Positions 10,379-23,848 of a stretch of 64,000 nucleotides of DNA are shown here, piece by piece. A program made the position numbers and the translations under genes. The stretch's first letter is position 1; every line of letters starts with the position of its first letter. The notes under the pieces were generated by a model that worked only from the letters and a program-made list of their open reading frames with translations, was not told where the DNA came from and did not search any database. Source of the stretch: Klenkia marina (GTDB lineage Bacteria; Actinomycetota; Actinomycetes; Mycobacteriales; Geodermatophilaceae); NCBI RefSeq assembly GCF_900101025.1, contig NZ_FMUH01000006.1:1-64000 (forward strand), in the 5' to 3' direction.

Positions 10379-10449
10379 GGCGGGTGATCCAACCAGAGCA
10401 GCGTGTCGGACGGGAACCCCGAGCGCACGGGCCCGCACCCTGGACGGCG

Positions 10450-11364
10450 ATGACCCGCGAACCGTTGCACCTGACCGCCACCCGGCTGCCCGGGGCCCGC
10501 ACCGGCCCCTCCCGCCGTGGCCGTCGCGCCCTGCTGGCCACGGTGGCGGCGCTCGCCGTGCTGCTCGGCGCCGGGTTCGGGGTGCTGGGCGGTGAGGACC
10601 CGGCACCGGTGCCCACCGCCGGGGCCGCCGTCACCGGTCCCGCTCCGGGCCCCACCACGGGTCCGGTCCCCGCTCCGCCGACGGCACCGTCCCCGAGCCC
10701 GTCGGTCCCGGGCCCCACGACGCCGTCGGCACCTCCCGCCGACCCGGCCACGCAGCCCCCCGGCCCCGTCGTCGCACCCACGGGTTCGGCGCTCGCGGCG
10801 CTGGCGGAGCTGCAGGTGCAGGGACGTGCCCCGAAGACCGGGTACGACCGCGACCAGTACGGCAACGGGTGGGTCGACACCGACCGCAACGGCTGCGACA
10901 CCCGCAACGACGTGCTCGCCCGCGACCTCACCGCCGAGCAGTTCCGCCCCGGCACGAACGACTGCGTGGTGACCAGCGGCGTGCTGCTGGACCCCTACTC
11001 CGGCGCCACCATCCTGTTCCAGCGCGGCCAGGGGACCAGCGAGCTCGTGCAGATCGACCACGTCGTCGCGCTGTCCAACAGCTGGCAGACCGGCGCCCAG
11101 GGCTGGGACGCCGAGCGCCGCGAGCAGTTCGCCAACGACCCGCTGAACCTGCTCGCCGTCGACGGGGCGCTCAACAACCAGAAGCGCGACGGCGACACCG
11201 CCACCTGGCTGCCGCCCGACCGCGGCTACCGCTGCGCCTACGTGGCCCGGCAGGTCGCGGTCAAGGTGTCCTACGGCCTCTGGACGACGCAGGCCGAGCA
11301 CGACGCCATGACCACCGTCCTGGCCACCTGCCCCGACCAACCGCTGCCGAGCGCCGTCGGCTAG
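10450..11364 (+). CDS. Exported HNH nuclease with DUF1524 domain
   Basis: 304 residues from the ATG at 10450. An Arg-rich N-terminus with one hydrophobic helix (about 28-48) acts as a signal anchor or signal peptide, followed by a Pro/Thr/Ser-rich linker to about residue 115. The C-terminal domain has the DUF1524 beta-beta-alpha metal signature: QIDHVVALSNSW, then NDPLNLLAVDGALNNQKRDG. The family cuts DNA non-specifically when secreted. The start is preceded closely by a CCCTGGACGGCG stretch, similar to the one before the gene at 11959, suggesting leaderless promoters. Confidence 0.85.
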   Translation: MTREPLHLTATRLPGARTGPSRRGRRALLATVAALAVLLGAGFGVLGGEDPAPVPTAGAAVTGPAPGPTTGPVPAPPTAPSPSPSVPGPTTPSAPPADPATQPPGPVVAPTGSALAALAELQVQGRAPKTGYDRDQYGNGWVDTDRNGCDTRNDVLARDLTAEQFRPGTNDCVVTSGVLLDPYSGATILFQRGQGTSELVQIDHVVALSNSWQTGAQGWDAERREQFANDPLNLLAVDGALNNQKRDGDTATWLPPDRGYRCAYVARQVAVKVSYGLWTTQAEHDAMTTVLATCPDQPLPSAVG

Positions 11365-11373
11365 ACAGTGCAC

Positions 11374-11907
11374 ATGACCGAGGCGACCACCCTGTCCGAC
11401 TCCGGCTGGCTCTCCCGCGAGGAGATGGACTCCGCCCGCGAGCGGCTGCCGATCCTCTACGTCGACGCACTGCCGGTGCGGGTCGACGACCACGGCGCGG
11501 TCACCAAGGTGGGCCTGCTGCTGCGGGTGGGCAGCGACGGCCAGATCAAGCGGGCGCTGGTCTCGGGGCGCGTGCTGTACCACGAGCGGGTGCGGGCGGC
11601 GCTGCTGCGGCACCTGGAGAAGGACCTCGGCCCGCTGGCCCTGCCGCGGGTGCCCCCGGCGCCGCAGCCGTTCACCATCGCCGAGTACTTCCCGACCCCC
11701 GGCGTCACCCCGTTCCACGACCCCCGCCAGCACGCCGTGTCGCTGGCCTACGTCGTCCCCGTCGAGGGTGACTGCGAGCCCCAGCAGGACGCCCTCGAGC
11801 TGACCTGGTTCAGCCCCGACGAGGCCCGCGACCCCGGGGTGCTCGCCGAGCTCGCCAACGGGCAGAGCGCGCTGGTGGTGCAGGCCCTCGCCCATCTGGG
11901 GGTCTGA
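11374..11907 (+). CDS. Nudix-fold protein of the DUF4916 type
   Basis: 177 residues from the ATG at 11374; a GTG two codons upstream is also possible. It starts with GWLSREEMDSARERLPILYVD and contains LLLRVGSDGQIKRALVSGRV and FTIAEYFPTPGVTPFHDPRQHAVSLAYVV, the pattern of actinobacterial DUF4916 proteins with a Nudix-like fold. The classic Nudix box is not obvious, so hydrolase activity should not be assumed. It follows the exported nuclease by 9 nt. Confidence 0.72.
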   Translation: MTEATTLSDSGWLSREEMDSARERLPILYVDALPVRVDDHGAVTKVGLLLRVGSDGQIKRALVSGRVLYHERVRAALLRHLEKDLGPLALPRVPPAPQPFTIAEYFPTPGVTPFHDPRQHAVSLAYVVPVEGDCEPQQDALELTWFSPDEARDPGVLAELANGQSALVVQALAHLGV

Positions 11908-13720: not shown

Positions 13721-13734
13721 CCCTCAGGCGGTGA
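13707..13734. repeat. 14-bp tandem duplication covering two convergent stop codons
   Basis: The 14-mer CCCTCAGGCGGTGA occurs twice head to tail (13707-13720, 13721-13734). The first copy holds the stop of the rightward hydrolase; the second holds the last codons and stop of the leftward jetC gene. The duplicated junction may mark where the two genes were joined. Confidence 0.8.
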
Positions 13735-16700
13735 CCGACCGGGCCAGGGCGCGCCGGGTGCGGTAGTCCTCGACGGTCAGGCACTGCAGCCGCGACTCGT
13801 CGCCCTGCTGGTTGTCCACGTAGGCCAGCGAGGCCACGAACGGCTCGATGACGTGGATCTTCTGCAGCGGGGTGACCACGAGCAGCTGCAGGCCCAGCCG
13901 GCCGAAGAGGTCCAGGGCGAACCGGGTCGAGTCGTCGGAGCTGCGCCCGAAGGCCTCGTCGACGACCACGAACCGGAAGTCGCGGGCCAGCGGGGCCGCC
14001 GGGTCGATGCCGAACTGGTAGGCCAGCGACGCCGCCAGCACCGTGTAGGCCAGCTTCTCCCGCTGCCCGCCGGACTTGCCGCCGGCGTCGGTGTGCGTCT
14101 CGTGCTCGGCGTCGTCGTGCCGCCACCGCTCGGTGGCGGTGAACACGAACCAGTTGCGGACGTCGGTCACCAGCCGGGCCCAGCGGCGGTCCTCGGCGAC
14201 GTGGCCGGACCGGCCGCGCAGCCGGTGCACCACGCGGGCGACGCGGGCGAAGCGCTCCTCGGGGTCGGTGCCGTCGGCCTCGGCGCAGGCGCGCAGGTCG
14301 GCGCGGAAGTCCTCGATCTCCGGGGCGTCGGCGCGCCGGGCGTCCAGGGCCAGGTACCGGCCGGGGTGGTAGTCGATGTCGTGCAGCGAGCCGTTGATCA
14401 GCTCGACCCGCTCGGTCACCTGCGCGGCCCGCCGCTCGAGCTCGGCCAGGAACCCGGCGATGTCGCGCACGGTGTCCTGCTCCAGCAGGGCGGTGAAGGT
14501 GGCCTCGGCCTGCGGCAGCCGGGCGGTGCGCAGGTGCTCGTGCAGTTCGCGGAAGGCGTCGGTGGCCGTGCGCGAGGCGTCGAGGGACGCCGCGACCGAG
14601 GGGTGCGCGGCCCGGAAGGCGGCCATCGCGCGGACCATGCGGGCCTCGACCTCGGCGCGCACCGAGGTCTGGGTGGTGCGCTCGCGCTCGAGCACCGCAC
14701 GCATGTTCCGCTCGCGCTCGTCGACGTCGTCCAGGTCGGTCAGCGGCACCGAGGCCACCAGCGCCCGGCGGTCCAGCCGCTCGGGGGCGGTCAGCGAGCG
14801 GTCGATGCGCAGGGCGCGGGCCACCGCCGAGCCGTCGTCCACGGCGACGCGGGCGGCCACCGGGTCGATCCGGTCGTCCTGGTCGATGCCCGCGGCCAGG
14901 CGGCCGCGCACGCCCTCCAGCACCCGGAACGTCTCGCCGAGCGCGTGCGCGGCCGCACCGCGGCGCTGCTGCAGCGTCGCCTGGGCGGTGGCCAGCCCGA
15001 CGATGTCTCGGCGGAGGTCCTCCATCGCGCCGTCGAGGCCGAACAGCACGCCGGAGGCGGCGACCAGCAGGTCGCGCTCGCGGCCGAGCTCGGCGATCTG
15101 CCGGATGGCGCCCTGCCAGTCCAGGGCCCGCCAGCTGTCGTGCGCCGACAGGGTGGCCAGGTCACGGCCGCGGGCCACGGTGCGGGCCCGCTCGGCCCGG
15201 ACGGCGTCGCGGGCGGCGGTGAGCTCGGTCAGCTGCGGGAGCAGGGCGCTCTCCGCAGCCGTCAGCGCGCGCACCTTGCCGGCGTTGTCCCAGCCGAGCA
15301 CCTGGTGCAGCGGGTCGCCGACGGGGAACCGGTCGTCGAGCACGTGCCGGCCGGTGCGGTCCTTGACCTGCCCGCAGCGGGTGACCGCGACCGGGGTGCG
15401 GCGGAACTCCTCGACGTCGTCGACCCGCAGGTGCGCCGCGCGCTGCGCCAGCTGGGTCTCCAGCCAAGCGGCGAGGGGGGTGGACCGCACCTCCAGGGTG
15501 GCGGCCAGCGACTGCGGGGCCGGCATGGGCGAGGCGGCGGGCAGCGTGGCCGGCAGCGGCAGGTAGGCCAGCTGCTCACCGCCCGCGCGCTCCTCGACCC
15601 AGGCACTCACGGCGGCGTAGTGCTCGTGCGGCACGAGCACGGTGAGCGCGAAGTCGCGCAGCACCCGCTCGGCGGCACCGGACCACTCGGCGTGCACGGG
15701 GGAGACCCGCACGAGCTCGCCGGCGAAGGGCAGCGTCGTCGGATCGACGCCCAGTGCCGCGGCCAGCCGGTCGCGCAGCCGCACCGAGGCCCGCGGGACG
15801 ACGCCCGTGCGCCCGCGCAGCCCGGTGAGCTCGTGGCCGATCTCGGCCGCCCGCGAGCGCAGCCCGGCCAGGGCGACCTCGACCTCGGCGAGCCGCTCGT
15901 CGACCTCGCCCTCGCCCTCCACCGCACGGGCCAGCGCCTCGGCGACCTCGGTCCGCCGGACGACGAAGTCCTCGCCGTCGGCCACCGGGTCCATGCCGGT
16001 GGCCTCCAGCAGCGCGGCGAACGTGCCGGCCCGGGTGCGCCGCTCGCGGCGGGCCTCCTCGAGCTCGAGCAGCTGCTCGTCGATGTAGCGCAGCCGCTCG
16101 CCGCCGTTGCCGGTGCGCTGCATGGTCAGCGAGAGCTCGCGGGCGCGGGCCAGGTCCAGGCTGGTGATGCCCTGGGTCAGCGCGCGGTCGGCGGCGGCGA
16201 CCTCGGCCCGCTGGGTGGTCGCACGGGCCGAGAGCAGCTTCTCCCGCAGCTCGTCGGCCCAGCGGGGCAGGGCGGCGAGGTCGGCGTCGACGGTGGCGAT
16301 CTGCTCGGTGAGCACGGCGTGCCGGTCGGCGTCGGCCAGCACCGGGGCCAGCTCGGCCAGCTGCTGGCGGCCGGTGACGACCGCGTCGTGGGCGTCGGTG
16401 AGCTGGTCGACGTGGCCCAGCAGGCGGTCGACCCAGCGCTGCGGATCGGCGGGTTCGAGCAGGTGGCTGCGCACGAAGGCGTTGAGGTCGCCGACGCTCT
16501 TCATCGAGACGGTCTGGTGGAACAGGTCCATCGCCTGCTCGTTCGCGATGCCCAGCCGGTTGCGGAAGACCCGGCCGTACTCGGTGAAGGTGCTGAACAC
16601 CTCGACGTCGGGGCGGGCGGCCAGTCGGCGGCGCAGCGCGGCGGGGTCGCTGCCGAACTCGGCGAGGTCGCCGGCGATCGACAGGTCGCGGTCGGCGACG

Positions 16701-17185
16701 AGGTGGAAGCGGTCGGGCTGGCCGACCTCACCGGCGCGCAGCCAGAACACCTGGCCGAGGGTGACGGTCTCGCCCAGGCCCTCGTTGCGGAAGACGGCCA
16801 GCAGCGCGGTCCACGTGCTGCCCGGGCGCAGCCCGACCTGACGGGTGCCGCCGGTGCTGCCGCTGCGCTCGGCCCGCCAGTGGCCCTGCACGTAGGAGCG
16901 CAGGTCGCGCTCGCGGGTGGGCGCGCCGGCGGCCTCGTTGAACGACACCCGGGACGCCGGCAGCAGCAGGGTGCTCAGGGCGTCGACGATGGTGGACTTG
17001 CCCGAGCCGATGTCGCCGGTGAGCAGGGTGTTCTGGCCGTCGGCGCGCAGGGTCCACACCCGGCGGTCGAAGGTGCCCCAGTTGAGCAGCTCGAGCCGGT
17101 CCAGCCGGAACCCCGCGGCGGGGGTGGGGCCCCCGTCGTCCTCGGTGGTGAGCAGCAGGTGCGGCACGGGCGGGGCGCTGGTCAC
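13724..17185 (-). CDS. jetC: Wadjet SMC-like ATPase JetC
   Basis: 1153 residues from the GTG at 17185, which overlaps the jetB stop by 4 nt. The N-terminal ATPase half has Walker A GDIGSGKST (57-65). Long helical and coiled-coil stretches with a hinge-like middle follow. The C-terminal half has the signature-like KSGGQREKL (about 1037-1045) and Walker B VVVDEAFGRSS (about 1073-1083). This is the SbcC/MukB-like chain of the JetABC complex, which extrudes DNA loops to recognise small circular DNA in Wadjet systems. The frame stays open upstream through jetB, but only this start gives a proper N-terminus. Confidence 0.9.
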   Translation of the reverse strand: MTSAPPVPHLLLTTEDDGGPTPAAGFRLDRLELLNWGTFDRRVWTLRADGQNTLLTGDIGSGKSTIVDALSTLLLPASRVSFNEAAGAPTRERDLRSYVQGHWRAERSGSTGGTRQVGLRPGSTWTALLAVFRNEGLGETVTLGQVFWLRAGEVGQPDRFHLVADRDLSIAGDLAEFGSDPAALRRRLAARPDVEVFSTFTEYGRVFRNRLGIANEQAMDLFHQTVSMKSVGDLNAFVRSHLLEPADPQRWVDRLLGHVDQLTDAHDAVVTGRQQLAELAPVLADADRHAVLTEQIATVDADLAALPRWADELREKLLSARATTQRAEVAAADRALTQGITSLDLARARELSLTMQRTGNGGERLRYIDEQLLELEEARRERRTRAGTFAALLEATGMDPVADGEDFVVRRTEVAEALARAVEGEGEVDERLAEVEVALAGLRSRAAEIGHELTGLRGRTGVVPRASVRLRDRLAAALGVDPTTLPFAGELVRVSPVHAEWSGAAERVLRDFALTVLVPHEHYAAVSAWVEERAGGEQLAYLPLPATLPAASPMPAPQSLAATLEVRSTPLAAWLETQLAQRAAHLRVDDVEEFRRTPVAVTRCGQVKDRTGRHVLDDRFPVGDPLHQVLGWDNAGKVRALTAAESALLPQLTELTAARDAVRAERARTVARGRDLATLSAHDSWRALDWQGAIRQIAELGRERDLLVAASGVLFGLDGAMEDLRRDIVGLATAQATLQQRRGAAAHALGETFRVLEGVRGRLAAGIDQDDRIDPVAARVAVDDGSAVARALRIDRSLTAPERLDRRALVASVPLTDLDDVDERERNMRAVLERERTTQTSVRAEVEARMVRAMAAFRAAHPSVAASLDASRTATDAFRELHEHLRTARLPQAEATFTALLEQDTVRDIAGFLAELERRAAQVTERVELINGSLHDIDYHPGRYLALDARRADAPEIEDFRADLRACAEADGTDPEERFARVARVVHRLRGRSGHVAEDRRWARLVTDVRNWFVFTATERWRHDDAEHETHTDAGGKSGGQREKLAYTVLAASLAYQFGIDPAAPLARDFRFVVVDEAFGRSSDDSTRFALDLFGRLGLQLLVVTPLQKIHVIEPFVASLAYVDNQQGDESRLQCLTVEDYRTRRALARSVTA

Positions 17186-17859
17186 GGGAGGTCCTCCACG
17201 GCGGGCTGGGTCTGCTGGGTGGCGGCGTACTCGGCGAGCTTGGTGTCGAAGTCGGCCAGCCACTGGGCGTCGACGAAGGCCTTGAGCACGCGGCGCACCT
17301 CGAACCGGCCGTCGGACCCGCCGGCACCGCCGGGCATGCGGCGCAGGAAGCCGAGCTCGACGACCTTGGCGATGTGCCCGTCGACCTGCTCCAGCAGCCG
17401 GTTGCGCCGGCCGGGGTCGGGCAGCAGGTCGGCGACGAGGTCGACGATCTCCAGCCGGCTGAGCACCAGCCGGCCGCCGGTGTCCCCGGTGTCGGCGACC
17501 GCGAGGCGGCGGCGCAGCAGCGCCAGCAGCAGGCTGACCGGGTAGGACAGCGACCGGCGGGCCACCAGCCGCGGAATGGCCGGGCCGCCCTCGGCCGGCT
17601 CCTCGGGGCGCTGGCGCAGGAAGGCGTAGCCCTCGGCCTCGTCGACCACCGCGACCAGGCCCATCGTGGCGACGTGGTCGCGCAGGTCGGGCTGCAGGGC
17701 GACCAGGTGGCGCCACACCTCCGGCGCGGCCTCGCGGTAGACCACGCCGCGCATGAGCGAGGTGACCACCAGGGGGAGGCTGAGCTCGGCGCGCGGCGAG
17801 GTGGGCGACGTGGTGGACGACGAGGTGGACGACGTGGCCTCGGGCAGGAGCGCGGTCAT
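17182..17859 (-). CDS. jetB: Wadjet protein JetB (DUF4194)
   Basis: 225 residues. An acidic Ser/Thr-rich N-terminus precedes winged-helix-like segments (VWRHLVALQPDLRDHVATMG, SYPVSLLLALLRRRL, VDLVADLLP, VELGFLRRM) typical of DUF4194, the MukE-like kleisin-associated subunit of Wadjet. It overlaps jetA by 4 nt (ATGA) and jetC by 4 nt, so the three are translated as one unit. Identification rests on sequence pattern plus operon context. Confidence 0.87.
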   Translation of the reverse strand: MTALLPEATSSTSSSTTSPTSPRAELSLPLVVTSLMRGVVYREAAPEVWRHLVALQPDLRDHVATMGLVAVVDEAEGYAFLRQRPEEPAEGGPAIPRLVARRSLSYPVSLLLALLRRRLAVADTGDTGGRLVLSRLEIVDLVADLLPDPGRRNRLLEQVDGHIAKVVELGFLRRMPGGAGGSDGRFEVRRVLKAFVDAQWLADFDTKLAEYAATQQTQPAVEDLP

Positions 17860-19340
17860 CGGGGGGTGTCCTCTGCGGTGTCTGCGGCGGCGGTGTCGTC
17901 GACGGCGGCGGCGGTGGGTCGGGCGCGGCGGCCGGCGGGGTGGGTGCTGCCGGCGCGGGGCCCGGCGTCCCGGCGGGCGAAGACCACCCGGGGCAGGGTC
18001 GCCGAGCGGGTGCGGCCGTCGGGGTCGGTCCAGCAGACGGTGTCGTCGTCCGCGGGGTGGTGGTCCTCGGGGTGGTCGTCGGCCGGCGGCGGGAAGACGA
18101 CGTCGAAGGCGTCGTCCCGCAGCGAGAGGTAGGCCATGAGCTCGGCCAGGCCGTGCTCGAGCGGGTGCTGCTCGAGCACGGTGACCAGCTCGACGCGCGG
18201 GCGCTGGAGCAGGGCGCGGCGCACGTGGGCGGTCAGCGGCACCGGGTCCACCTGCACCTGGTCGAACAGGGCGGCCGCGGCGAAGTCCTCGTCACCGGCC
18301 TCGGGCCGGGCGCTGTCGACGGTGGCCCGCCGCGGCGGGGCGTAGAGGTGGCGCTCCATCGGCAGCACGACCGTGGGGGCCAGGTCGTCGAGCTCGACGG
18401 CGAAGCCGTCCAGGTCGGCCAGACCCGCGGCCAGCCGGGCGGCGCGCGCCTCGATGCCGTCCAGCAGCTCGAGCACCCGCCGGTTCTCCCGCACCACGCG
18501 GTCGTCCAGGCCGGTGCGCAGGGCGTCGGCGAGCCCGCGCAGCACCTGCCGGGTGTGCTCGACCGCGGTGACCAGGTCGTGCTGCAGGCGCGGCAACCGG
18601 GGGTCGGTGCAGGTGCGCACCGCGGGCAGGGCGTGCACCCGGGCGAGGAGGTCGGCCAGCTCCTCCTGCAGGCGGGGGGAGAGCAGCCGGTCGTAGCAGG
18701 CGTGGAAGCTGCGGCCCTGGTCGGAGTCGGCGATGCCGCGGCGCCCGGCGGCGACGTCGCGGGCCAGTGCCTGGTCCCCGCCGGCGATGCGGTCGCGCAG
18801 CTCGCGGTCGCGCCGGCGGAACACCGCCTCCACCGCGCGCAGGTCGGCGAGCAGCCCGCGGGCGGTGCGCGCCAGGTGCAGGTAGCGGTCGCGCTGCAGC
18901 GCGGGCTCGGCCGGCGGCTCGGTGGCCAGGGCGCGCAGCAGGTCCACGACGGAGTCCAGCCGGGCCGAGGTGTCGACGAACGGGCGGGGGGCCAGGCCCG
19001 CGACCCAGGCGATGGCCAGCTCGGCGGCGGGCGTGGCGTCCATGAGCGGCTCGTCGGCACCCGGCGGGTACCAGGCGCGCAGCCAGCCGCCGTCCGGGCC
19101 GGCCCAGCCGTCGAGGTAGCCGCGCGCGTCGACCGGGGCGCGGGTGGTGCCGTCGAGCTCGGCCAGCAGGTCGCCGAGCCGGTCGGCCAGCTCGCCGGCG
19201 GGCAGCCCGTGCGCGCCGCCGGTGACGAACACGCGCGACAGGAAGCTGAGCACCAGCGGGGCGTCGTCGGCCCGCAGCAGCCGCCAGGCGGCGTGCTGCT
19301 GGAGGGCGACGACGTCGTCGACGGGCAGGTCGAGCTGCAC
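17856..19340 (-). CDS. jetA: Wadjet protein JetA (DUF3375)
   Basis: 494 residues from a GTG at 19340. The N-terminal part (ALQQHAAWRLLRADDAPLVLSFLSRVF) and the long helical centre (RDRELRDRIAGG, HACYDRLLSPRLQEEL) match DUF3375, the MukF-like kleisin subunit. The C-terminal 60 residues are low-complexity (Asp/His/Pro then Arg/Ala), beyond the usual domain. It is the first gene of the jetABC operon. About 95 nt separate it from the divergently placed end of the GGDEF-EAL gene. Confidence 0.87.
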   Translation of the reverse strand: MQLDLPVDDVVALQQHAAWRLLRADDAPLVLSFLSRVFVTGGAHGLPAGELADRLGDLLAELDGTTRAPVDARGYLDGWAGPDGGWLRAWYPPGADEPLMDATPAAELAIAWVAGLAPRPFVDTSARLDSVVDLLRALATEPPAEPALQRDRYLHLARTARGLLADLRAVEAVFRRRDRELRDRIAGGDQALARDVAAGRRGIADSDQGRSFHACYDRLLSPRLQEELADLLARVHALPAVRTCTDPRLPRLQHDLVTAVEHTRQVLRGLADALRTGLDDRVVRENRRVLELLDGIEARAARLAAGLADLDGFAVELDDLAPTVVLPMERHLYAPPRRATVDSARPEAGDEDFAAAALFDQVQVDPVPLTAHVRRALLQRPRVELVTVLEQHPLEHGLAELMAYLSLRDDAFDVVFPPPADDHPEDHHPADDDTVCWTDPDGRTRSATLPRVVFARRDAGPRAGSTHPAGRRARPTAAAVDDTAAADTAEDTPR

Positions 19341-19433: not shown

Positions 19434-21641
19434 CTACGTGGGGTTGCCGACCGCGGTGCCGAGCTGCTCGGCGGGCACCGGGCGGCCGAACAGCCAGCCC
19501 TGGCCGGCGTCCACCCCGAGGGCGGCGAGCCGGGCGCACTGCGCGTCGTCCTCGATGCCCTCGGCCAGGACGTCGACGCCGAGCGCGGCGGCCAGCGCGA
19601 CCAGCCCGCCCAGCAGCGCACCGGCGGCATCGGAGCCGGTGATCGAGCGGTCGAGCTTGAGCACGGTGACCGGGTAGCGCTGCAGGTAGGCCACCGAGGT
19701 GTAGCCGGTGCCGAAGTCGTCGAGGCTCACCCCGACGCCGAGCGCGGCCAGCTCGTGCAGGGCGTCGACGCCGGCGTCGGGCGGCAGCTGGTCGTGCTCG
19801 GTGATCTCCAGCCGCAGCCGGTGCGGGGGCAGCCCCGTGCCGGCCAGCGTCGCCCGCACCCCGTCGGCCAGCCCCGGGTCGACCATCGAGGTGCGGCCGA
19901 GGTTGACGCTGACCGTCCACTGCTCCGGCCAGGTGGTGGCCGAGCGGCACGCGGTGCGCAGCACCCAGGCGTCGAGCAGGGCGCCGTGGCCCTGCTCCTC
20001 GGCGACGGGCAGGAAGGTGTCGGGGGCCAGCAGACCGCGGGTGGGGTGCTGCCAGCGCACGAGCGCCTCGCAGCCCAGCACGGTGCGGCTGGGCAGGGCG
20101 ACCAGCGGCTGGTGGAGCAGCACCAGCTCGCCGACGTCGTCCTCACCGGCGGCGAGCCGGCGGACGTCGTCGGCCAGCGCCAGGCTGCCGAGCACCTCCT
20201 CGCGCTGCTCGGCGGCGAAGCGGGTGGCTCCGCCGCGGGTGGTGCCCTTGCTGGCGTAGAGGGCGACGTCGGCGTCGGCGAGGGCCAGGGGGAGGCTGCT
20301 GTCCGCGGTGAGCTCGACCCACCCCGCGCTGCAGCGCACGGGGAACGAGCGCCCGTCGAGCTCCACCGGTTCGGCGAACGCCCCGCGCAGCAGGTCGTCG
20401 ACGTCCGGGCCGCCGGGCGGGAGCAGCAGCACGAACTCGTCGCCGCCCGAGCGGGCCACGGTGGCGCCGCCGCCGACGCCGGCCAGCAGGCGCAGCGCCA
20501 CCGACACCAGCAGGTGGTCCCCGGCCTCGTGGCCGTAGGTGTCGTTGACGTGCTTGAAGTCGTCGAGGTCCAGCAGCGCGAGCCGGCCGACGACGGCGTC
20601 GGGCGCGGTGACCCCGACGGTGCCGGGGCCCACCAGGTCGTCGAAGGCGACCCGCAGGCCCCGCCGGTTGGCCAGCCCGGTGAGGGGGTCGCGGCGGGCC
20701 TGCTCCTCGCTGCCGCGGATGGTCTGCGCGCCCCGGACGATGGCCAGCGCGCTGACCACCGCGGCGCTGCTCAGGTGGACGGTGGCGGGCAGCATGCGTC
20801 CGCTGCCCAGCAGCGAGAGGGCGACGGGCACGAGCACCAAGGGGGTGAGCCCGACCAGCCGGGCGGACTCCGACCGCAACCGGCCCAGCACGTGCGGGTC
20901 GAAGGCGGCGCGCATGCTCGGGTGCAGCGACCCGGCGAGGAAGGCGCACATCGCCGCCGTCCAGAGCACCGCGGTCGGGTGCTGCGGGCCGGGGATGCGG
21001 TCGCCGGAGTCGTTGGCCAGGCAGTCGTAGACCGCGGCGCCGACGCCACCGGCGACCAGCAGCACCATGCCCGGGCCGAGCCCGCCGCGGGAGGCGACGA
21101 AGCGCAGCAGCAGGCAGACCAGCACGAGGTCGAAGGGCGCGACGGGCACCGGCCACGCGACGCCGGGGGTCAGCGCCGCGGCGGCGGACTGCCCGACGGC
21201 GAGGGTGACGACGACCACGACCACGAGCTGGTCCGTGCGCCGTCCCCAGGTGGCCCGCCCGAGGCGGCGCCGCTCGACAGGTCCGCGTCGCCACCACCGG
21301 CCGAACAGGACGGCGAACAGCCCCACGGCCACCGCGATGCCGACGGCCTGCAGCGCGAGGGCCGGCCCGGGGGCGGTGTCGGCCAGCCCCATCGCCAGGC
21401 CCCAGCAGGCCAGCATCGCCGCGACGGCCAGCCACGGGTGGTGCCAGGGGGGTCGGTGCAGCCGCACGCCCACCAGCGGGGCGAGGGCGGCCAGCGCGGT
21501 GGCCACCAGCACGGCCGGGGTGCGGGTGGGCGGCCAGGCGGTCAGCGGCAGCAGCACGAGGGCGCACAGCAGGGGCACGACCACCGTGCCCCTGGCCGAT
21601 CCCACCTCGGCATCCTGCGGCACGGAGCGCCGGGTGGTCAC
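19434..21641 (-). CDS. Membrane-bound GGDEF-EAL protein (copy 1)
   Basis: 735 residues from a GTG at 21641 that overlaps the stop of the paralogue upstream (GTGA). The N-terminal third has about eight hydrophobic helices forming a membrane sensor. Then comes a diguanylate cyclase domain (RDPLTGLANRRGL, LDLDDFKHVNDTYGHEAGD, active loop SGGDEF) and a phosphodiesterase domain with EALVRW, SVNLG, LEITEHD, DDFGTGYTS, LKLDRS and GQGWLFGRP. Both catalytic loops look intact; no RxxD inhibitory site precedes GGDEF. It should make and/or break cyclic di-GMP; the net activity is not predictable. Confidence 0.9.
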   Translation of the reverse strand: MTTRRSVPQDAEVGSARGTVVVPLLCALVLLPLTAWPPTRTPAVLVATALAALAPLVGVRLHRPPWHHPWLAVAAMLACWGLAMGLADTAPGPALALQAVGIAVAVGLFAVLFGRWWRRGPVERRRLGRATWGRRTDQLVVVVVVTLAVGQSAAAALTPGVAWPVPVAPFDLVLVCLLLRFVASRGGLGPGMVLLVAGGVGAAVYDCLANDSGDRIPGPQHPTAVLWTAAMCAFLAGSLHPSMRAAFDPHVLGRLRSESARLVGLTPLVLVPVALSLLGSGRMLPATVHLSSAAVVSALAIVRGAQTIRGSEEQARRDPLTGLANRRGLRVAFDDLVGPGTVGVTAPDAVVGRLALLDLDDFKHVNDTYGHEAGDHLLVSVALRLLAGVGGGATVARSGGDEFVLLLPPGGPDVDDLLRGAFAEPVELDGRSFPVRCSAGWVELTADSSLPLALADADVALYASKGTTRGGATRFAAEQREEVLGSLALADDVRRLAAGEDDVGELVLLHQPLVALPSRTVLGCEALVRWQHPTRGLLAPDTFLPVAEEQGHGALLDAWVLRTACRSATTWPEQWTVSVNLGRTSMVDPGLADGVRATLAGTGLPPHRLRLEITEHDQLPPDAGVDALHELAALGVGVSLDDFGTGYTSVAYLQRYPVTVLKLDRSITGSDAAGALLGGLVALAAALGVDVLAEGIEDDAQCARLAALGVDAGQGWLFGRPVPAEQLGTAVGNPT

Positions 21642-23848
21642 CTCCGGGGGGAGCTGGCCGCGGGCAGCTGGTCGGCGGGCACCGGCTGCCCGTAGAGCCA
21701 GCCCTGGCCGGCGTCGATGCCGAAGGAGACCAGCCGGGCGTGCTGCGCCTCGCACTCCACGCCCTCGGCGAGCACCTCGATGCCCAGGGCGCCGGCCAGG
21801 CTGGTGATGCCCGAGATGAGCTCGGCGCTGGTGTCGTGGCCGGTCACCGAGCGGTCCAGCTTGAGCATGCTGACCGGGTAGCGGTGCAGGTAGGCCAGCG
21901 AGGTGTAGCCGGTGCCGAAGTCGTCGAGGCTGACCCGCACGCCCAGCTCGGCCAGCTCGTGCAGCTGGGCGACGCCGGCCTCGGCGGGCAGCTGGTCGTG
22001 CTCGGTGATCTCCAGGTGCAGCCGTCCCGGTGGCAGGCCGGTCGACCGCAGGGCCCGGCGCACCCGGACCGACAGGCCCGGGTCGATCATCGACGAGCGG
22101 CCCAGGTTGACGCTGACGGTGCGCTCGAGGCCCTGCTCGGCCCAGGTCGCGGCGACCGCGCAGGCCCGGTCGAGCACCCAGGTGTCCACGGCTGCGCCCT
22201 GGCCCTGCAGCTCGGCGACGGGCAGGAAGGTGTCCGGGCCGAGCAGGCCGCGCGTGGGGTGCTGCCAGCGCACGAGCGCCTCGCAGCCCAGCACCGCGCG
22301 GGTGCGCATGTCGACCAGCGGCTGGAACAGCAGGAACAGGGACCCGACGGCGGGGTCGCCGGCGACCAGTCGGCGCAGGTCCTCGCCGAGGCCGAGCTGG
22401 CCCAGCACCGCCTCGCGCTGCTGCGGGGCGAACTCGGTGGCGGCACCGCGGTGCGCGCCCTTGCTGGCGTACAGGGCGATGTCGGCGTCGGCGAGGGCCA
22501 GCGGCAGCTCGCTGGCGGGGCTCAGCGGCACCCAGCCGGCGCTGCACCGCACGGGGACGCTGCGCCGGGCCAGGCCGGCCAGCTGCACGGGGCTGCCGAA
22601 CGCCGTGCTCAGCAGCTGCTGCACCGACGGTGCCCCGGGCCGCAGCACCAGCACGAACTCGTCCCCGCCCGAGCGGGCCACGGTGCCGTCGCCCCCGACG
22701 GCGGCCGACAACCGCTCGCCGACCGCGCACAGCAGCAGGTCGCCGGTCTCGTGGCCGTGGGTGTCGTTGACGGCCTTGAAGTCGTCGAGGTCCAGCAGCG
22801 CCACCCGTCCGACCTCGGCGTCGCCGGGGCGGGCGTCGACCAGGAGCTGGTCGAAGGCGATCTGCAGGCCCCGCCGGTTGGCCAACCCCGTGAGGGGGTC
22901 GCGGGCGGCGTGGCCCTCGCTGGAGAGGAGGGCCTGTGCGCCGCGCACGATGGCCAGCGCGGACACGGCCGTGCCGGCGGCGACGTGCACGATGAGCGGG
23001 AGCCGCCCGGGGGCCGGCAGCAGGGCCAGGGCCAGCGGCACGGGGGCCAGCGCCACCAGCCCCAGCACCCGGCCGGACTCCGGGCGCAGGCGGCGCAGGG
23101 TGGCGCTGCTGAAGGCGGTGGTCATGCTCGGGTGCAGGGCGGCGAGCACCACCAGGGCCATGGCCAGCGCCCAGACCATCGAGACCGGGGCGTGCAGCGG
23201 CTGCAGGCGCAGGCCCGAGGACGACGCCACGGCGTCGTAGACCGCGGCCGCGACGCAGGCGGCGATGAACAGCCGGAGGCTCGTGGTCAACCCCGCACGG
23301 GAGAACAGCAGGCGCAGCACGAGCGCGACGAGCATGACGTCGATCGGTGCCCAGAAGGCGCTGGGCGGGGCGTCGGGGGCGTGCGCGGTGGTGACCACCT
23401 GGGCCGCCGCCAGCCCGAACAGGACGACGAGGACGGCGAGGTCGGCGCGCCGGCCCCAGACGGCGCGCTCGCGGGTGCGCCGGTCGGTGGGCAGCGAGCG
23501 CACGTGCCGGGTGAAGAGGTAGAGCGCCAGGCCCAGGCCGAACACGGTGCCGGCGTCCTGCGCGCGCTCGCCGAACCCGGGCCAGCGGGTGCCGAAGGTG
23601 ATCGAGAGGGTCCAGCCGACGAGCATGCCGGTGACCACGACCCAGGGCAGCAGCCCGACGGCGCGGTGCCGCAGGGCGCCGACGGCGGGGGCGACGGTGG
23701 CCAGCACGCTGATGACGACGACCGCGGTGGGCCGGGTGGCGGGGACGAGGGCGGCCGGGAGCGCCAGGCCGGTGCCGATCCCGAGGGCTGTGGCCAGTGC
23801 ACGGGGCAGCCGGCCGGACGCGGGGATCACGTGGGCCTTCTCGACCAC
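21638..23848 (-). CDS. Membrane-bound GGDEF-EAL protein (copy 2)
   Basis: 736 residues from a GTG at 23848. Same layout as its downstream neighbour: about eight membrane helices, RDPLTGLANRRGLQIAFDQL, LDLDDFKAVNDTHGHETGD, SGGDEF, then EALVRW, LEITEHDQLP, DDFGTGYTSLAY and GQGWLYGQP. The two proteins share long identical runs in the cytoplasmic domains and less in the membrane part, so they are tandem duplicates that have diverged in the sensor. They are coupled by a 4-nt overlap. Confidence 0.9.
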   Translation of the reverse strand: MVEKAHVIPASGRLPRALATALGIGTGLALPAALVPATRPTAVVVISVLATVAPAVGALRHRAVGLLPWVVVTGMLVGWTLSITFGTRWPGFGERAQDAGTVFGLGLALYLFTRHVRSLPTDRRTRERAVWGRRADLAVLVVLFGLAAAQVVTTAHAPDAPPSAFWAPIDVMLVALVLRLLFSRAGLTTSLRLFIAACVAAAVYDAVASSSGLRLQPLHAPVSMVWALAMALVVLAALHPSMTTAFSSATLRRLRPESGRVLGLVALAPVPLALALLPAPGRLPLIVHVAAGTAVSALAIVRGAQALLSSEGHAARDPLTGLANRRGLQIAFDQLLVDARPGDAEVGRVALLDLDDFKAVNDTHGHETGDLLLCAVGERLSAAVGGDGTVARSGGDEFVLVLRPGAPSVQQLLSTAFGSPVQLAGLARRSVPVRCSAGWVPLSPASELPLALADADIALYASKGAHRGAATEFAPQQREAVLGQLGLGEDLRRLVAGDPAVGSLFLLFQPLVDMRTRAVLGCEALVRWQHPTRGLLGPDTFLPVAELQGQGAAVDTWVLDRACAVAATWAEQGLERTVSVNLGRSSMIDPGLSVRVRRALRSTGLPPGRLHLEITEHDQLPAEAGVAQLHELAELGVRVSLDDFGTGYTSLAYLHRYPVSMLKLDRSVTGHDTSAELISGITSLAGALGIEVLAEGVECEAQHARLVSFGIDAGQGWLYGQPVPADQLPAASSPRR

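What the first reader, a model, noticed from the sequence alone, without database searches (positions are those of the whole stretch)
13724..19340. Wadjet jetABC operon without jetD
JetA, JetB and JetC are intact and coupled by 4-nt overlaps, but no JetD (DUF3322/DUF2220 Toprim nuclease) follows; jetC ends 3 nt from a convergent hydrolase. JetD is the cutting subunit in characterised Wadjet, so the operon is either disarmed, uses a nuclease elsewhere, or does something other than plasmid cleavage.
Basis: partly seen in the sequence, partly recalled or inferred. Interest (0 to 1): 0.68.

Follow-up and report, generated by a model that had tools for sequence, protein, structure and literature searches.

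The report
Wadjet motor without its DNA cutter
A group of soil bacteria (Klenkia) keeps the DNA-looping engine of a plasmid-destroying system, but its ancestor lost the part that cuts DNA and the engine's linker protein was rebuilt, so the machine now probably handles DNA without cutting it; similar cutter-less engines were already known, but this remodelled version appears to be new.

Summary
JetA, JetB and JetC are type-I Wadjet proteins, overlap by 4 nt, and no jetD follows. No JetD profile matches anywhere in this genome or in eight other Klenkia genomes.

The operon is not a recent accident. Six Klenkia species share it at one chromosomal site (JetC 86-87% identical, ATPase motifs kept, dN/dS about 0.3). 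Relatives in the family carry jetABCD near the same NUDIX gene; in one, jetD lies exactly between jetC and NUDIX. So jetD was very probably lost in a Klenkia ancestor. The six also share a deletion of exactly one JetA helix and have lost 20% of JetA's near-universal residues, almost all in its middle domain. Another Klenkia genome (G080) has gone further: JetB is lost and JetC lacks ATPase motifs.

JetD loss is not unique: Oerskovia/Cellulosimicrobium, Gordonia and a divergent actinobacterial MksBEF group also lack it, and the literature already describes nuclease-less MksBEF/MukBEF as condensins. Best reading: a JetD-independent, MksBEF-like loop extruder derived from a defence system. Its role in the cell is inferred, not shown. 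New variant of a known kind.

The parts
17856..19340 (-). jetA / mksF: kleisin (DUF3375), 494 aa; N- and C-terminal winged-helix domains kept, middle domain remodelled
   Evidence: Pfam 2.9e-92, PADLOC JetA1 4.9e-121; Foldseek best hits are JetA of E. coli and P. aeruginosa, then MukF
18903..18917 (-). site of the 33-residue deletion in jetA: one helix plus linker present in all other type-I JetA examined
   Evidence: DUF3375 match splits into 3-131 and 168-474; spacing of 66 residues (64 in one) elsewhere; helix 146-168 of the JetD+ model is missing in the Klenkia model
17182..17859 (-). jetB / mksE: KITE subunit (DUF4194), 225 aa
   Evidence: Pfam 7.1e-40, MksE 3.2e-10, PADLOC JetB1 1.4e-75
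13724..17185 (-). jetC / mksB: SMC ATPase, 1153 aa
   Evidence: PADLOC JetC1 1147 bits; phmmer to PDB JetC 8dk2 3.6e-51
16991..17017 (-). JetC Walker A, GDIGSGKST
   Evidence: invariant in six Klenkia and in JetD+ relatives
14063..14077 (-). JetC ABC signature, KSGGQ
13949..13969 (-). JetC Walker B with catalytic glutamate, VVDEAFG
15302..15682 (-). JetC hinge region (residues 502-628): 10 of the 21 near-universal JetC residues lost in Klenkia lie here, four of them basic in JetD+ relatives (R538, R543, K616, R625)
   Evidence: placed on the E. coli JetC hinge by the alignment
13721..13723 (.). 3-nt gap downstream of jetC, where jetD stands in JetD+ relatives; no remnant
   Evidence: G028 has NUDIX(+) jetD(-) jetC(-) here
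11368..11907 (+). NUDIX/DUF4916 gene: landmark shared with the jetABCD loci of G028, G025 and G010

Best explanation
This is a former type-I Wadjet system (JetABCD) whose nuclease gene jetD was lost in an ancestor of Klenkia, and which was kept as a JetD-independent SMC complex of the MksBEF kind. JetC (SMC ATPase), JetA (kleisin) and JetB (KITE) should still form a ring that loads on DNA and extrudes loops with ATP. With no Toprim nuclease, extrusion should end without cleavage. The middle domain of the kleisin (in C. glutamicum the kleisin is the subunit that binds the nuclease) was rebuilt after or with the loss: one helix is gone. The most likely cellular role is an accessory condensin acting beside canonical Smc (chromosome organisation or segregation). 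Shown by sequence: the components, the ATPase motifs, the absence of JetD, the shared locus, purifying selection and the helix deletion. Inferred: complex assembly, loop extrusion, and the chromosomal role.
For: Six species with JetC 86-87% identical. dN/dS 0.33 for JetC and 0.35 for JetA and JetB; flanking genes range from 0.14 to 0.72. Walker A, signature and Walker B kept in all six. JetD absent genome-wide. JetD+ relatives near the same NUDIX gene. The tree sets Klenkia with JetD+ Geodermatophilaceae and apart from the other jetD-less clades. JetA has a fixed helix deletion and 26/132 conserved sites changed, against 0/132 in the JetD+ sister clade. Canonical Smc is present in all nine. 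Precedent: the P. [quoted passage not shown] MksF (JetA) is the subunit that binds MksG in C. glutamicum (10.1093/nar/gkad130).
Against: No direct evidence of a chromosomal role or of loop extrusion. The system is dispensable: G079 lacks it and G080 has a version without ATPase motifs. dN/dS at about 98% GC3 is imprecise. Oerskovia and Gordonia lost JetD without remodelling JetA, so the remodelling is not a simple consequence of losing JetD. The middle-domain and hinge changes could partly reflect relaxed constraint.
Confidence: 0.58

Rival explanations
1. Non-cutting immunity: JetABC still recognises plasmids or phage DNA and compacts or silences it without cleavage, as Smc5/6 does to viral episomes.
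For: Close kinship to type-I Wadjet. Patchy presence (intact in six of nine Klenkia genomes) resembles an accessory defence trait. Smc5/6 restricts viral DNA by compaction (discussed in 10.1042/BST20221395).
Against: No defence genes recognised around it; the neighbours scanned are mostly metabolic and signalling genes. The site is fixed across species, and four conserved basic hinge residues are lost.
Confidence: 0.17
2. Nuclease in trans: JetABC recruits an unrelated nuclease, for example the GmrSD_C/HNH protein at 10384-11364, which sits at the locus in all six jet-positive Klenkia.
For: The HNH gene is found at the locus in all five other Klenkia with intact jetABC and not at the loci of G079, G080 or G082; GmrSD_C nuclease domain 1.7e-23.
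Against: It has an N-terminal hydrophobic segment followed by a Pro-rich linker, so it is probably secreted. It is on the opposite strand and not in the operon, and the co-occurrence is also explained by common descent of the six. No JetD-type Toprim nuclease in the genome.
Confidence: 0.1
3. Disarmed relic in slow decay with no function.
For: G080 shows an advanced stage of decay or conversion at the same locus, and G079 has none. Klenkia JetA has lost 20% of near-universal residues.
Against: All three frames and the ATPase motifs are intact in six species; dN/dS about 0.33. Neutral simulation puts several stops in jetC after only 0.1 substitutions per site. The helix deletion is in frame and fixed.
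Confidence: 0.15

Closest known systems
Wadjet type I (JetABCD; MksBEFG of C. glutamicum, EptABCD of M. smegmatis)
   Same: JetA, JetB and JetC families, gene order and tight coupling; JetC ATPase motifs; the JetC tree places Klenkia among JetD+ type-I systems
   Different: No JetD anywhere in the genome; JetA lacks one conserved helix; conserved hinge residues changed
Nuclease-less MksBEF (P. aeruginosa; divergent actinobacterial jetD-less group)
   Same: SMC, kleisin and KITE operon without MksG/JetD, alongside canonical Smc
   Different: Independent origin: the actinobacterial group is separated by a very long, fully supported branch; Klenkia is much closer to JetD+ type I
MukBEF of E. coli
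   Same: MukB-like SMC with MukF-like kleisin and MukE-like KITE, no nuclease (10.1016/j.cell.2025.02.032)
   Different: Klenkia retains Smc, whereas MukBEF replaced it; distant in sequence
jetD-less type-I JetABC of Oerskovia/Cellulosimicrobium and of Gordonia
   Same: Same type-I clade, jetD missing next to intact jetABC
   Different: Separate losses on the tree; JetA and JetC keep nearly all conserved residues. In G. hydrophobica the jetD-less set lies in tandem with a jetABCD set

Membership tests
Wadjet type I defence system (JetABCD) | JetA (DUF3375), JetB (DUF4194) and JetC (SMC) in one operon | tested here: met
Wadjet type I defence system (JetABCD) | JetD (DUF3322/DUF2220 Toprim nuclease), needed for plasmid restriction | tested here: not met
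   absent from operon and genome
Wadjet type I defence system (JetABCD) | Cleavage or restriction of circular plasmids | not testable with these tools
   needs an experiment; it is not filed here as a Wadjet defence system because JetD is absent
MukBEF/MksBEF (MukBEF-like SMC, wider Wadjet group) | MukB-like SMC with intact ATPase motifs, MukF-like kleisin and MukE-like KITE | tested here: met
MukBEF/MksBEF (MukBEF-like SMC, wider Wadjet group) | Nuclease-less operon | tested here: met
MukBEF/MksBEF (MukBEF-like SMC, wider Wadjet group) | Role in chromosome organisation or segregation | not testable with these tools
   inferred from P. aeruginosa only (10.1128/mSphere.00238-20)
Divergent actinobacterial jetD-less MksBEF clade | Common descent with that clade | tested here: not met
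   JetC tree, separating branch 2.08 substitutions per site, support 100

The most novel reading that the evidence does not exclude
Klenkia records the conversion of a plasmid-cutting SMC defence machine into a non-cutting DNA-organising machine, at one chromosomal site and within one family: a jetABCD state (G028, G025, G010), a JetD-less state with a rebuilt kleisin (six Klenkia species), and an ATPase-motif-less, JetB-less derivative kept as a long open frame (G080). The deleted JetA helix would then be a part of the kleisin that serves JetD coupling or cleavage control and not loop extrusion itself.
Probability: 0.33. Interest if true: 0.62.

Novelty: new variant of a known kind. Interest (0 to 1): 0.43.

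Why it matters
How the same SMC architecture serves both plasmid cutting and chromosome folding is an open question, and MukBEF/MksBEF are thought to be ex-defence systems. Klenkia offers a traceable case within one family, with JetD+ relatives at the corresponding locus. It points to a specific JetA helix and to specific JetC hinge residues as candidate differences between cutting and non-cutting SMC complexes, testable by helix deletion in the E. coli or C. glutamicum systems. Practically, tools that call Wadjet from JetABC alone would overcount plasmid-cutting defence in Actinomycetes, since more than half of the JetA-positive genomes in the class sample have no detectable JetD.

Tried and rejected
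JetB IFDR motif as a JetD-contact test: no recognisable IFDR in this subtype, JetD+ or JetD-, so uninformative. Shared loss of conserved sites across the three jetD-less type-I clades as a map of the JetD interface: almost no overlap (one site each for JetA and JetC, two for JetB), so no interface could be mapped. The idea that the JetA helix deletion is a general result of JetD loss: rejected, Oerskovia and Gordonia JetA keep all 66 residues. tblastn hits of JetD to Klenkia and Oerskovia loci: artefacts of stop-to-stop ORFs whose 5' part reads the jetC region in another frame; the JetD profile finds nothing. Replacement of canonical Smc: rejected, Smc is present in all nine Klenkia. A common fourth gene replacing jetD in the divergent jetD-less group: none found. 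YN00 dN/dS failed; NG86 used instead. The JetABCD structure papers were not in the library, so JetA-JetD contacts in 8q72 could not be read.

Full report
What is there. Three genes on the minus strand, jetA 17856-19340, jetB 17182-17859 and jetC 13724-17185, match DUF3375, DUF4194 and the SMC/SbcC-type ATPase, and the PADLOC type-I JetA/JetB/JetC models. They overlap as ATGA and GTGA. jetC stops 3 nt from a convergent alpha/beta hydrolase. JetC keeps Walker A (GDIGSGKST), the signature (KSGGQ) and Walker B with its catalytic glutamate (VVDEAFG). By fold, JetA is nearest to E. coli and P. aeruginosa JetA and then MukF (the model is of middling confidence, mean pLDDT 78, pTM 0.47).

No JetD. PF09983 gives nothing in the own genome or in the nine genomes of the genus, while it finds JetD in 22 of 115 genomes of the family. 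DUF3322 gives nothing. A profile of 13 JetD proteins, including those of the nearest relatives, gives nothing in nine Klenkia genomes (best E 0.11 over 45 residues). No fragment of 30 residues or more remains at the locus.

The loss is old and shared. JetC is found in the own genome and five other Klenkia at 86-87% identity, always without JetD and in the same gene neighbourhood. In G028, a relative of another genus in the family, the order is NUDIX(+), jetD(-), jetC(-), that is, jetD sits where Klenkia has two small genes and no jetD. In G025 and G010 the jetABCD operon lies about 5 and 12 kb from the same NUDIX gene in the same relative orientation. The JetC tree puts the Klenkia group on one side of a fully supported branch with JetD+ Geodermatophilaceae; with a distant outgroup the order of Klenkia, those relatives and the rest is unresolved. 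Because JetD accompanies the family broadly and stands at the corresponding locus in relatives, loss in a Klenkia ancestor is the economical reading. This is inference from distribution and synteny.

The rest is kept. NG86 dN/dS among the six is 0.33 for jetC and 0.35 for jetA and jetB; neighbouring genes run from 0.14 (NUDIX) to 0.72. All of this divergence postdates the loss if the loss preceded the split of the six. GC at third positions is 98%, so these values are rough and probably too high. A neutral simulation from the window's jetC gives a mean of 3.8 stops after 0.1 substitutions per site, so open frames in six species are not chance.

The kleisin is rebuilt. In every other type-I JetA that could be aligned, from Actinomycetota, Pseudomonadota, Nitrospirota and others, the stretch from TESRL to RDRYQQ is 66 residues (64 in one); the six Klenkia lack 33 of them, and the gap-free match of the same stretch to E. 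coli and P. aeruginosa JetA shows it is ancient. Predicted models show what is missing: helices 124-140, 146-168 and 177-218 in the JetD+ Micromonospora JetA, but 124-140 and 146-186 in Klenkia, that is, one whole helix and its linker are gone. Of residues conserved in at least 90% of JetD+ sequences, Klenkia has lost 26 of 132 in JetA, 2 of 47 in JetB and 21 of 291 in JetC; the JetD+ sister clade lost 0, 0 and 5, Oerskovia/Cellulosimicrobium 1, 2 and 2, and Gordonia 4, 2 and 7. JetA is hit harder than JetC (Fisher p 0.0003). The JetA losses lie almost wholly between residues 123 and 304, the middle domain; the winged-helix ends are spared. Ten of the JetC losses lie in residues 502-628, which align to the E. 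coli JetC hinge, including four basic residues. In E. coli Wadjet, hinge-channel charge matters for obstacle bypass (10.1038/s41467-025-65408-5); the Klenkia residues are not the same positions as those mutated there, so the link is suggestive only. A divergent JetD+ subclade (Gd3) also loses many conserved sites, but in JetA and JetC about equally (14 of 132 and 31 of 291), so divergence alone can produce such counts; the JetA bias is what is special.

How it probably works. JetA, JetB and JetC are the motor; JetD is the cutter. The C. glutamicum work places MksG on MksF, the JetA equivalent (10.1093/nar/gkad130). With JetD gone, the motor should load and extrude without cleavage. In P. aeruginosa, MksBEF beside Smc shapes and segregates the chromosome (10.1128/mSphere.00238-20), and a review holds that it likely arose from JetABCD by losing JetD (10.1042/BST20221395). 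Klenkia also has canonical Smc in all nine genomes, so an accessory condensin role is the best guess. It is not essential: G079 has no copy.

How common is it. Among the 80 nearest type-I loci in GTDB, jetD is also missing beside intact jetABC in four Oerskovia, one Cellulosimicrobium and three Gordonia. No JetD exists anywhere in the Oerskovia genomes or in two of the Gordonia. On the tree these and Klenkia are three separate changes. In a sample of 395 genomes of the class, DUF3375 was above cut-off in 66 and JetD_C in 40, and only 30 of the JetA-positive genomes were also JetD-positive (the overlap counted from the tables). Of 33 such loci read, none showed JetD by a separate profile and no common fourth gene followed jetC; two (L235, L237) could not be judged. 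The 14 of these put on the tree are a divergent MksBEF group far from Klenkia. A 2025 study of the Wadjet group likewise listed operons lacking MksG (10.1016/j.cell.2025.02.032); its tables were not available here, so Klenkia may be among them.

Verdict. The most surprising reading (a unique Wadjet without its nuclease) is not: nuclease-less relatives are known and frequent. What seems new is a locus-traceable conversion inside one family with a specific kleisin helix deletion, and a further ATPase-motif-less derivative in G080.

Noticed in passing
L074:9023-12981 (G080, Klenkia): At the related locus G080 has a shortened JetA (267 aa, no N-terminal domain, but with the 66-residue stretch), no JetB, and a 1092-aa JetC-like frame in which Walker A (GDLGTGSTA), the signature and the Walker B glutamate are lost, yet the frame is open; neutral simulation predicts stops. 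Possibly a repurposed SMC protein without ATPase activity.
   Followed up: partly
L097, L099, L100, L104, L113: Oerskovia and Cellulosimicrobium carry jetD-less type-I jetABC in a conserved order: LysR-type gene, secreted protease-like gene, jetABC, with topA about 4 kb downstream.
   Followed up: partly
L114:1255-13411: Gordonia hydrophobica has a jetABCD (jetC apparently split in two frames) directly followed by a second, jetD-less jetABC; the two may share one JetD.
   Followed up: no
window 10384-11364 (+): Gene for a GmrSD_C/HNH nuclease with an N-terminal hydrophobic segment (probably secreted), at this locus in all six Klenkia with intact jetABC and not at the G079, G080 or G082 loci.
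   Followed up: partly
L208-L240: About 30 actinomycete loci with a divergent jetABC and no jetD or common fourth gene; within one genus code (f29 g58) some members have jetD and some do not.
   Followed up: partly
window 19434-23848 (-): Two consecutive GGDEF-EAL genes upstream of jetA, conserved at the locus in Klenkia but evolving fast (dN/dS about 0.66 for one of them).
   Followed up: no
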